Below are positions 8,933 through 46,046 of a DNA stretch of 53,887 nucleotides, in pieces. Made by a program: the position numbers and the translations under genes. The stretch comes from a virus: IMG/VR virus record IMGVR_UViG_3300050343_000164, positions 1-53,887 of that record. One strand, written 5' to 3'. Below the pieces are notes generated by a model. It was given only the letters and a program-made list of their open reading frames with translations, was not told where the DNA came from and ran no database searches. The number at the start of each line of letters is the position of its first letter. The stretch's first letter is position 1.

Positions 8933-9109
8933 ATGTCGCGACTGGTATTGACAAGGAAAGTCAACGATAAGGTCACCCTCTCCAAAGACGGTGAGCATGT
9001 CGCTACTGTAACAGTGGGTCGGATAGACCGAAACCAAGTCAGAATCGTATTCGAAGCAGACTCTAATGTAGAAATAACCCGAGAGCCTCGGGAAAAAAAG
9101 TCTGCCTAA
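8933..9109 (+). CDS. csrA: CsrA/RsmA-type RNA-binding translational regulator
   Basis: 58 residues, one base after the polymerase stop. LVLTRKV at 4-10 matches the first strand of CsrA (E. coli L4 and R6 correspond to L6 and R8). RNQVRI (33-38) matches GNQVRI. VEITRE keeps the RNA-binding Arg (R50, E. coli R44), although the usual His before it is Thr. There is about 4 residues of extra length in the loop after strand 1. CsrA dimers bind ANGGA sites, often in hairpin loops over an SD, and block or alter translation. No clear SD; translation is probably coupled to the polymerase. Possible phage targets are the leaders at 12418 and 45161. Confidence 0.9.
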   Translation: MSRLVLTRKVNDKVTLSKDGEHVATVTVGRIDRNQVRIVFEADSNVEITREPREKKSA

Positions 9110-44014: not shown

Positions 44015-45160
44015 TTACTGAGCGGTATCGAGGCAGATGACTCCAAAGTCTTCTACGCCGCCGTTTACGTCGCTGTTGTACTTAGGCTTGCGAAGACCGA
44101 AGATCTTGCCTACCGAAATACCCAGCTGGTTACCGTAGTCAAAGGTATCTTCTACGATATCGGGCAGACCAATGTCAGCCATAGCCAGTGCTTGAGCGCC
44201 GACAAACAGGGCTCGTGCTCCGTCGATGTTTGCGTCCGCGCCCCACTTGTAGCCAGCTGCACCAGCGTTGCTAGAAGCACCGGACGTTGCGCCTTCGGTT
44301 GAAAAGACGTGTCGGAACTCATGGACCATGACGCCATCAACCATCAGGCTAGAGGAACCAGCAAACAACTCGTTGTTGGGTCCACGAACACCTGCGTTAC
44401 GGACGTTAGCTAGGAAGTCTGAGTCCAGCTTCAGACTAGCCATCTGCTGTGGAGTAACAAACAGGTGGAACACCTCTTGGTTACCCGCAGCTCGCATACC
44501 ACGAATAAAGTTATCCTTGGCGTAAGCCTTCAGATTCACAATGTGGCTATAAGCAAGCTTGTCCGTAGCTGTGATTGCAGTCGTGTCACCAGCTAGAAGG
44601 TTTGAACCGCTGATGCGTCGGTGCCGGTTGGTGGTAGGAGCAGAGACATCTGAAGCAAACTCCAGGTCTACCAGCTCGTGTCCAGCAGTACCGGAAGTAG
44701 TTCGCAATCCGCCGTTAGTCTTCGACGTATAAGCAACACCTGACAACGTCAAGAACGCCAGCTGGTCCATACGGTCAGCCATGGCATATGCCAACATGTC
44801 GCGTGAAGTCTCACGGAAGTTAACGATCGTCTTCTGATCGGCAACTCGGCCAGCAATACGGTTCGCGAAGCGCAACTGATCCAGCTCAATGGTGATGTCA
44901 TACGCGCGGAGGGCTTCTTCGTTACCTTCCAGAGTATTGTCACCAGTGATACCGTCTCCAGTCATGTCAGCGAGCAGCGTCAAGTTAGCCTTGGTGCCTT
45001 TCTCCGACTTGGTAAGCTCAGTAATCCGCTGAACAGCAGCGTTCTGACCAGTACCAGCGAACTGGTTAATGAAAGAAGCGTTACGAGCAACGCGCCAAAA
45101 ATCACGGGACCACGCCTGAAGCTGGTCACCCGAGAGTGTTCCAAAGTTAGTATTAGCCAT
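44015..45160 (-). CDS. Major capsid protein, N4 gp56-like
   Basis: 381 residues. An N-terminal FWRVARNASFINQFAGTG and TLLADMTGDGITGDNTLEGN, then ELDQLRFANRIAGRVADQ, FHLFVTPQQMASLKLD, VMVHEFRHVF and ALFVGAQALAMADIG are the hallmarks of the N4 gp56-type capsid family (HK97 fold). Own terminator directly downstream and a 255-nt gap upstream with a structured leader and a dispersed element. Strong SD (AAAGGAG) that is complementary to a hairpin loop in the leader. Confidence 0.92.
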   Translation of the reverse strand: MANTNFGTLSGDQLQAWSRDFWRVARNASFINQFAGTGQNAAVQRITELTKSEKGTKANLTLLADMTGDGITGDNTLEGNEEALRAYDITIELDQLRFANRIAGRVADQKTIVNFRETSRDMLAYAMADRMDQLAFLTLSGVAYTSKTNGGLRTTSGTAGHELVDLEFASDVSAPTTNRHRRISGSNLLAGDTTAITATDKLAYSHIVNLKAYAKDNFIRGMRAAGNQEVFHLFVTPQQMASLKLDSDFLANVRNAGVRGPNNELFAGSSSLMVDGVMVHEFRHVFSTEGATSGASSNAGAAGYKWGADANIDGARALFVGAQALAMADIGLPDIVEDTFDYGNQLGISVGKIFGLRKPKYNSDVNGGVEDFGVICLDTAQ

Positions 45161-45415
45161 TTTTTGGCTCCTTTAGTGCATAGATAAAAGTTGATGGCAC
45201 AGCGCCACCGTTTTTAGCCGACTTAAAGGAGCGGCTAATCCGTATCTCCGTATCGTGGAGCGACGAACTAGCGCTTATTAACGAGGGGCGACCTCGGCTT
45301 GTTTTACGCCTGTGCAGGCGAAGACGTTTTTAGCGTGACCGACACGATCAGATATCGTTCTGATGGACGAACCTATCATGTATATTAGCGTGGGTAATAA
45401 TATGAAGCAAGCCAT
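45161..45415 (-). promoter_or_regulatory. Structured 5' leader of the capsid gene
   Basis: 255 nt without a gene. Read on the minus strand: element copy 9 (45384-45398), hairpin CGCCT-GCAC-AGGCG (45307-45320), hairpin CGAGG-TCGCC-CCTCG (45282-45296), two ACGGA (45247-45251, 45239-45243), hairpin TTAGCCG-N11-CGGCTAA (45214-45238), hairpin GGTGGC-GCTGT-GCCATC (45193-45209; its G-U pair exists only in minus-strand RNA), then the SD. The loop of the third hairpin plus one stem base, GCTCCTTTA, is complementary to TAAAGGAGC at the SD (45167-45175). Confidence 0.65.
45384..45398 (+). promoter_or_regulatory. ATTAG-N5-TAAT element, copy 9 (reversed relative to capsid)
   Basis: On the plus strand ATTAGCGTGGGTAAT. 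Unlike the other copies, its conserved half faces away from the downstream gene (capsid, minus strand). It lies 17 nt past the end of the HNH-like small gene and 223 nt upstream of the capsid start. Confidence 0.65.
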
Positions 45416-45646
45416 TTATACCCTGTAACTACCACGATTCTTCTTCCTGCTTACAACAGTGGTGTTGCTGCTTTTGTTGTTTCGTGGATTACCATCTTTA
45501 TGATGCACGTCTTTCTTGTCACCTTTTTTAACCTTTCCTTTTGCTAAAGCAGCTCGGCGCGCTTTGTTGCGGGCGGCACGACGCTTCTTCTCCGCGTCTG
45601 TCTTGTGATACTCATACTCTTTTTTGTAGTTACGCGTGTTAGCCAT
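45416..45646 (-). CDS. Small basic HNH-like phage protein
   Basis: 76 residues from ATG 45646 (AGGTGAGG upstream); an in-frame start at 45727 is rejected. The N-terminal NYKKEYEYHK and a Lys/Arg-rich helix are followed by KKDVHHKDGNPRNNKSSNTT, which resembles the HNH His-His-x-D-G-N-x-x-N core without a full nuclease domain. Small proteins of this kind sit next to capsid genes in many phages. They may bind DNA; nuclease activity is doubtful. Confidence 0.7.
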   Translation of the reverse strand: MANTRNYKKEYEYHKTDAEKKRRAARNKARRAALAKGKVKKGDKKDVHHKDGNPRNNKSSNTTVVSRKKNRGSYRV

Positions 45647-45650
45647 GACC

Positions 45651-46046
45651 TCACCTGTGTCGAGATGTTTTCTTTGCAATCTTCTTCGGCTGAGAAGAAA
45701 ACTGCTTCCCTTTGGCGGTGTCAGCACGCTTCTTACGGGACGTAGCGGCGTATTCTTTCTTACTTAGAGACTCACGGGCTTTTTTCGGTAAGTACCGCTC
45801 GCCGGTAGCCTTGCTGCCCTGGGTGCTGTTCTTCCCGCTCTTAGTGCCCCACTTCTCTTTTGTCCACTTTGAAAGAGACTTCTGAGCTTCTGTCTTGGGG
45901 CCTGTATAACCCCCACCGGATTTTTTATACCGCTGCGTAGCCAGTTGCGCCTTCCTAGCGCTCCACTGCCCCGGCTTCCCGCCTTTAGAACCAGCTTTTA
46001 CTGATGCAACGATGCGCTTCCATTTCGGCTCATCTTTTCGGGCCAT
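45651..46046 (-). CDS. Basic phage protein, DUF5872-like
   Basis: 131 residues from ATG 46046 (AGGAG 11 nt upstream). KWKRIVASVKAGSKGGKPG, QWSARKAQLATQRYKKSGGG and LSKWTKEKWGT match the DUF5872 pattern: small basic proteins found in phages. The C-terminal half is Lys/Ser-rich with YLPKKARESL. Probably binds nucleic acid. Sits in the cluster of basic genes between scaffold and capsid. Confidence 0.7.
   Translation of the reverse strand: MARKDEPKWKRIVASVKAGSKGGKPGQWSARKAQLATQRYKKSGGGYTGPKTEAQKSLSKWTKEKWGTKSGKNSTQGSKATGERYLPKKARESLSKKEYAATSRKKRADTAKGKQFSSQPKKIAKKTSRHR

What the first reader, a model, noticed from the sequence alone, without database searches (positions are those of the whole stretch)
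45161..45240. Capsid leader: a hairpin loop complementary to the capsid Shine-Dalgarno
In minus-strand RNA, TTAGCCG-N11-CGGCTAA (45238 to 45214) forms a 7-bp hairpin whose loop plus closing base reads GCTCCTTTA. This is a perfect 9-nt complement of TAAAGGAGC at 45175-45167, the SD of the major capsid gene. The RNA can thus form a local hairpin with a kissing contact, or a long stem that hides the SD. A further hairpin between them has a G-U pair that works only in minus-strand RNA. A 9-nt match at this exact spot is unlikely by chance. Inference: a translational switch for the capsid gene.
Basis: partly seen in the sequence, partly recalled or inferred. Interest (0 to 1): 0.78.

Follow-up and report, generated by a model that had tools for sequence, protein, structure and literature searches.

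The report
Folded RNA leader of capsid gene

Summary
The hairpin and the 9-nt complement to the Shine-Dalgarno (SD) are in the sequence as described. They are the 3' end of something larger: a conserved structured RNA (45371-45214, minus) that, by its position just downstream of a conserved promoter, should form the 5' leader of the major capsid mRNA of KPP25-like phages. Across 64 diverse relatives 96% of base-pair cells are paired, against 30-45% when partners are slid; 26 of 32 pairs show double changes. G-U outnumbers A-C cells 99 to 15, so it works as sense-strand RNA. In 221 of 221 testable loci it lies just upstream of the capsid start. Rfam has no match. The same pseudoknot module occurs in the capsid leaders of cultured phage KPP25 and a Motiliproteus provirus. 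Most likely it is a cis-acting leader bound by a protein, with a shielded 5' end. The structure is shown; the function is inferred.

The parts
45382..45410 (-). Predicted sigma70-type promoter: -35 TTGCTT (45410-45405), 17-nt spacer, -10 TAATAT (45387-45382); predicted start about 45375
   Evidence: Similar promoter found in 119 of 128 relatives, 17-nt spacer in 106; -10 lies 7-13 nt before PK1 in 113 of the 119
45214..45371 (-). Conserved structured RNA core (158 nt): predicted 5' leader of the capsid mRNA
   Evidence: 64-sequence structural alignment A3, covariance model R1 172 bits (the window is among the sequences the model was built from), phylogeny-aware covariation, G-U 99 v A-C 15
45347..45369 (-). 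PK1: CGU (45369-45367) pairs with loop ACG (45358-45356); stem P1 45364-45360 with 45351-45347
   Evidence: CGU:ACG 93, CGC:GCG 12, CGU:GCG 11, no CGC:ACG; CUUG:CAAG in L234/L265; P1 pairs covary beyond the phylogenetic null
45334..45346 (-). Hairpin P2 (CGUG/CACG), followed by a UUAAAAA-type linker
   Evidence: 45344:45336 and 45343:45337 covary; UA, GC, CG, AU and CG, GC, GU types
45307..45320 (-). Hairpin P3 (CGCC/GGCG), followed by a UWAAA-type linker
   Evidence: 99.2% of cells paired; CG/UA double changes
45282..45296 (-). Hairpin P4 (CGAGG/CCUCG), followed by a UWAA-type linker
   Evidence: 97.8% of cells paired; changes on both sides at all 5 pairs
45246..45265 (-). PK2: CGU (45265-45263) pairs with loop ACG (45256-45254); stem P5 45260-45257 with 45249-45246
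   Evidence: P5 pairs covary; CGU:ACG in 119 parsed leaders and CGC:GCG in L210
45214..45238 (-).
   Evidence: 96.4% of cells paired in its inner six pairs, four with double changes; AGCC/GGCU to AGUC/GACU, AUC/GAU, ACC/GGU in relatives
45193..45209 (-). Variable hairpin P7: hairpin kept, sequence not; usually not a terminator
   Evidence: stem in 114 of 122 regions parsed, mean z -2.4, but some parsed regions also include P6; only 18 of 122 have a U-rich tail
45167..45175 (-). SD of the capsid gene with 9-nt complement to the P6 loop (not conserved)
44015..45160 (-). Major capsid gene (Phage_capsid_3)
   Evidence: Pfam PF13252 E=2e-48, phrog_334 major head protein E=6e-82; 53% identical to KPP25

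Best explanation
The element is a conserved, cis-acting, structured leader of the capsid mRNA. Shown: a sense-strand RNA fold of two H-type pseudoknots, three hairpins and the hairpin P6, found only upstream of the capsid gene. Predicted: transcription starts a few bases before PK1, so the mRNA's 5' end is closed by a pseudoknot. Inferred: the repeated modules (CGU/ACGAUA pseudoknots, UUAAA-type linkers, CNCC...AAGU loop), whose unpaired bases are conserved, are a binding site for a phage or host protein that sets how much capsid is made, and the closed 5' end protects the transcript from 5'-end-dependent decay. The SD is not controlled by direct pairing with the P6 loop.
For: Structure: 95.9% of cells paired v 30-45% slid, covariation score 0.418 v at most 0.10 slid; all 8 pairs at the top of a phylogeny-aware test are Watson-Crick pairs of P1, P2 or P5; pseudoknot covariation. 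RNA, not DNA: G-U 99 v A-C 15. Non-coding: core length varies in all three phases and frames are closed. Selected: 73% pairwise identity in the core v 50% at capsid third codon positions and 36% in the spacer. Cis role: one copy, always before the capsid where testable, one match in the window. Predicted 5' end at PK1. Ancient: the pseudoknot descriptor recurs in the KPP25 leader (CGC:GCG) and a Motiliproteus provirus, 0 of 200 shuffles matching either; weaker in Pasteurella testudinis and phiA008. RppH and RNase E need single-stranded 5' ends, which explains why 5' structures stabilise mRNA (PMC3997798).
Against: No transcript data: promoter and start are predictions. No ligand identified. 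Pseudoknots are 3 bp each and rest on few independent changes. Constraint on unpaired bases could reflect tertiary packing rather than protein binding.
Confidence: 0.5

Rival explanations
1. Purely structural 5' stabiliser: the folded leader only blocks 5'-end-dependent decay and keeps capsid mRNA long-lived; no specific ligand.
For: PK1 sits at the predicted mRNA 5' end; 5' secondary structures stabilise mRNA (PMC3997798).
Against: A 5' hairpin would be enough; about 160 nt with many near-invariant unpaired bases is far more than shielding needs.
Confidence: 0.22
2. One reading: P6 loop or GCUCC pairs with the SD and hides it, alternating with P6.
For: 9-nt complement and pseudoknot-free MFE in the window; loop-SD pairing probability above 0.5 in 26 of 64 relatives.
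Against: Complementarity not above permutation (P=0.36) and loop changes not compensated in the SD; enforced P1-P6 nearly abolishes the pairing.
Confidence: 0.07
3. Target of the phage-encoded CsrA homologue, which binds GGA in the leader and at the SD.
For: CsrA homologue at 8933-9109 and in 14 of 26 relative contigs, including all 11 searched of at least 46 kb; in the more distant BcepMigl and LASTA a gene annotated CsrA-like is directly upstream of the capsid gene.
Against: The only recurrent GGA of the core (ACGGA) is GGG or GGU in 31 of 125 leaders, among them L133 and L138, whose contigs encode CsrA; KPP25, phiA008 and AP1 records have no match to the CsrA model.
Confidence: 0.08
4. A separate trans-acting RNA (for assembly, packaging or host control) processed from the leader.
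For: Compact, conserved, own predicted promoter; phage RNAs such as the phi29 packaging RNA exist (general knowledge).
Against: Never found away from the capsid start; no conserved terminator.
Confidence: 0.1
5. A DNA site (packaging, replication or transcription-factor site).
For: Located in the head gene cluster.
Against: G-U 99 v A-C 15 and compensatory pairs show selection on sense RNA.
Confidence: 0.02

Closest known systems
T4/T2/RB69 gene 32 mRNA leader (pseudoknot plus UUAA(A) repeats, gp32 autogenous repression; PMC3014915)
   Same: Phage mRNA leader; pseudoknot upstream of the start; UUAA(A) repeats 3' of it; single gene target
   Different: Controls an ssDNA-binding protein, not capsid; one pseudoknot and an unstructured repeat tract; no sequence relation shown
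STAXI motif (RF01728; PMC2864571)
   Same: Repeated pseudoknot units in tandem
   Different: Near ssb, topoisomerase, antirestriction or integrase genes in Enterobacteriales; the model gave no match to this leader at E up to 5
5'-terminal stabilising structures such as ompA and papA 5' stem-loops (references in PMC3997798; ompA from general knowledge)
   Same: Structure at the (here predicted) 5' end of an abundant mRNA
   Different: Those are simple stem-loops; this is about 160 nt with conserved loops
manA and wcaG motifs of marine metagenomes and cyanophages (PMC2864571)
   Same: Structured leader RNAs in marine phages
   Different: Near metabolic and photosynthetic genes; no Rfam match here

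Membership tests
Known Rfam family | Match to a covariance model at gathering score | tested here: not met
   No match in the whole window at gathering; nothing relevant in 45120-45480 at E up to 5
STAXI (RF01728) | Match to the model of tandem pseudoknot units | tested here: not met
STAXI (RF01728) | Location near DNA-manipulation genes | tested here: not met
   Every testable locus precedes the capsid gene
T4 gene 32-type autogenous pseudoknot leader | Pseudoknot upstream of the regulated start codon | tested here: met
   PK1 and PK2 by covariation
T4 gene 32-type autogenous pseudoknot leader | Downstream gene encodes a single-stranded-nucleic-acid-binding protein | tested here: not met
   Major capsid protein
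T4 gene 32-type autogenous pseudoknot leader | The gene product binds and represses its own mRNA | not testable with these tools
   Needs binding and reporter assays
CsrA/RsmA target leader | Conserved GGA sites in the leader besides the SD | tested here: not met
   ACGGA in 94 of 125 only; SD GGA in 130 of 130 is uninformative
5'-terminal mRNA-stabilising structure | Structure within a few nt of the mRNA 5' end | tested here: inconclusive
   Predicted from promoter position; start not mapped

The most novel reading that the evidence does not exclude
A new family of tandem-pseudoknot RNAs in phage capsid mRNAs that is bound by a head protein (capsid, scaffold or a partner) and feeds back on capsid synthesis, so that shell protein output is matched to assembly; the same RNA logic, with CGC:GCG pseudoknots, would operate in cultured phage KPP25.
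Probability: 0.17. Interest if true: 0.85.

Novelty: new variant of a known kind. Interest (0 to 1): 0.62.

Why it matters
Tailed phages must make hundreds of capsid subunits in a set ratio to other head proteins; known controls are mostly promoters, start-site strength and gene order (general knowledge). A large, conserved, pseudoknotted leader restricted to the major capsid gene, in many uncultured marine phages and in some form in a cultured Pseudomonas phage, would be a distinct layer of control and can be tested in reporters. A 2010 review could name the T4-type gene 32 leader as perhaps the only viral pseudoknot used for translational autoregulation (PMC3014915). It is also a warning: a perfect 9-nt complement between an anti-SD-like loop and an SD can arise from two separately constrained motifs.

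Tried and rejected
(2) Alternative long helix GCUAGUUCGU/ACGGAUUAGC, part of the pseudoknot-free MFE: it competes with P6 and PK2; RNAalifold finds it on A1 but distant relatives (L253, L258, L245, L212) do not keep it by eye while P6 and PK2 pairs are kept, and L210 changes CGU and ACG together inside PK2. (3) Intrinsic terminator or attenuator at P7: only 18 of 122 have a U-rich tail. (4) Known ribozyme, riboswitch or other Rfam RNA: none. (5) Coding leader peptide: no conserved frame. (6) CsrA sponge or target: GGA not conserved in the core. (7) Extra pairing of the P2 loop with its downstream linker: seen by eye in some sequences only, not among the covarying pairs. (8) First pattern scan failed because I miscounted the spacer; repeated correctly. 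(9) A weak model hit in a bacterial genome (L321) lies inside a predicted 273-aa ORF with no capsid relative nearby and is taken as chance. (10) Literature searches found no description of a structured capsid leader in these phages; the library is partial.

Full report
WHAT WAS CLAIMED AND WHAT IS THERE. The minus strand holds TTAGCCG-N11-CGGCTAA at 45238-45214, and GCTCCTTTA there is the exact complement of TAAAGGAGC at 45175-45167, just before the capsid ATG at 45160. A third hairpin at 45209-45193 has one G-U pair. So the letters are as described. The pseudoknot-free minimum-energy fold of the leader does pair the loop strand with the SD. Rfam has no match in the window and none of relevance at relaxed threshold in the leader.

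RELATIVES. The capsid (Pfam Phage_capsid_3; PHROG major head protein) is 53% identical to that of Pseudomonas phage KPP25. IMG/VR holds hundreds of closer relatives. I extracted 130 distinct leaders of at least 215 nt. They show a conserved block from 45371 to 45214. An exact core pattern occurs once per locus in 226 loci; all 221 that reach far enough downstream have the KPP25-like capsid start 81-107 nt after the pattern start. Some of these loci are overlapping pieces of the same contigs, so this is a count of loci, not of independent viruses.

STRUCTURE. On A3, counting P1-P6 and PK1, 95.9% of 2042 cells are standard pairs; sliding partners by 1-3 columns gives 30-45%; 26 of 32 pairs show changes on both sides; no shuffle of 500 reaches any of the five measures. 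In a separate test on 125 sequences, with columns evolved independently along the tree, the eight pairs listed (E below 0.5 per alignment, six of them at most 0.07) are all Watson-Crick pairs of P1, P2 or P5. PK1 is CGU:ACG in 93, CGC:GCG in 12 and CGU:GCG in 11 of 123 leaders parsed; the mismatch CGC:ACG was not seen. L234 and L265 have CUUG:CAAG at PK1 (read). PK2 has CGU:ACG in 119 and CGC:GCG in L210. P6 is kept through several double changes.

RNA, SENSE STRAND, NOT CODING. G-U cells are 99 and A-C cells 15, as expected for RNA read from the capsid strand and not for DNA or the other strand. The core is 73% identical between random pairs, against 50% at capsid third codon positions, 36% in the spacer and 46% in the promoter region. 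Core length varies in all three phases and frames are closed.

TRANSCRIPTION. A sigma70-like promoter lies directly upstream in 119 of 128 leaders, with a 17-nt spacer in 106; the -10 element usually ends 7-13 nt before PK1. With a usual start 6-8 nt after the -10 (general knowledge), PK1 is at or near the 5' end. This is prediction; no transcript data were available.

REACH. A descriptor for the pseudoknot module (CGY, stem, RCG loop) finds two in the window leader, two modules (three overlapping hits) in the KPP25 leader with CGC:GCG, and two in a Motiliproteus coralliicola provirus (0 of 200 shuffles for KPP25 and Motiliproteus; for the window 1% with the loose descriptor and none with the strict one); one each in Pasteurella testudinis and phiA008 (about 3%); none in AP1 or KLEP18-1 (sequences). 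The covariance model itself matches close relatives (bits 72-172) and the Motiliproteus leader only marginally (E=0.037). So the architecture probably reaches KPP25, but homology there rests on the module and position, not on the model.

I paired each P6 loop with its own SD and with SDs of other relatives. Mean longest complement is 4.73 for own and 4.69 for permuted (P=0.36); 9 nt is reached by 3 of 124, against 1.3% of all combinations. Twenty distinct combinations have lost CUCC in the loop but keep GGAG in the SD. In pseudoknot-free ensembles the loop pairs with the SD with probability above 0.5 in 26 of 64 relatives, and enforcing P1-P6 nearly removes it. So the long stem is thermodynamically possible in the window's lineage but not maintained by selection.

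MECHANISM. Shown: a conserved sense-strand RNA fold restricted to the capsid leader. Inferred: it acts in cis on capsid expression. Structures at the 5' end slow decay because RppH and RNase E need single-stranded 5' ends (PMC3997798). But that would not need about 160 nt with near-invariant unpaired bases, so I favour a protein-binding leader with a shielded 5' end. The nearest functional parallel is the T4 gene 32 leader, where gp32 binds a pseudoknot and is thought to spread over UUAA(A) repeats (PMC3014915); the parallel is of layout only. Tandem pseudoknots also define the STAXI motif (PMC2864571), which does not match by model or gene context.

CsrA. The window encodes a CsrA homologue at 8933-9109. 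It is found in 14 of 26 relative contigs, including all 11 searched that are 46 kb or longer; shorter contigs may simply not reach it. In the more distant BcepMigl and LASTA a gene annotated CsrA-like lies directly before the capsid gene. However, the recurrent GGA in the core is lost in 31 of 125 leaders, and KPP25, phiA008 and AP1 give no CsrA match. I keep CsrA as a rival.

LIMITS. Structure is from comparative analysis only. MAFFT misaligns parts of PK2 in a few lineages, so PK2 was counted by a motif parser, which failed or misparsed a handful of leaders. Counts are of sequences, not independent events. The P7 count mixes in P6 for some leaders. The literature library is partial.

Noticed in passing
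8933-9109 (+): CsrA/RsmA-family protein (58 aa, PF02599 E=4e-9) between a family A DNA polymerase gene and a DUF5906/VapE-like gene; found in 14 of 26 relative contigs searched
   Followed up: partly
L290 872-1066, L291 869-1078: In Burkholderia phage BcepMigl and Klebsiella phage LASTA a gene annotated CsrA-like lies directly upstream of the major capsid gene; a paper on the related phage JC1 reports a CsrA peptide in virions (PMC9144972)
   Followed up: partly
45381-45401 (-): The promoter consensus has an imperfect inverted repeat ATTAG-N-CTAAT overlapping the -10 element in many relatives, possibly an operator
   Followed up: no
45416-45658 (-): Small HNH-like protein (PF13392 E=3e-6) just upstream of the capsid leader; HNH genes also lie by the capsid gene in Paracoccus phage KLEP18-1 and Rhizobium phage RHph_Y1_10
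   Followed up: no
L086 2790-2997: Paracoccus phage KLEP18-1 capsid leader holds a P3-like TTCGCCCGCGCAGGCGTTAA and a hairpin with a CCCC..AAGT loop before the SD; a possible distant relative that the descriptor does not recognise
   Followed up: partly
L007 1-491: A near relative lacks the stretch from P6 to just before the SD, either a real deletion or an assembly error
   Followed up: no
45193-45209 (-): Hairpin P7 is retained in shape but not in sequence between P6 and the SD in most relatives; function unknown
   Followed up: partly
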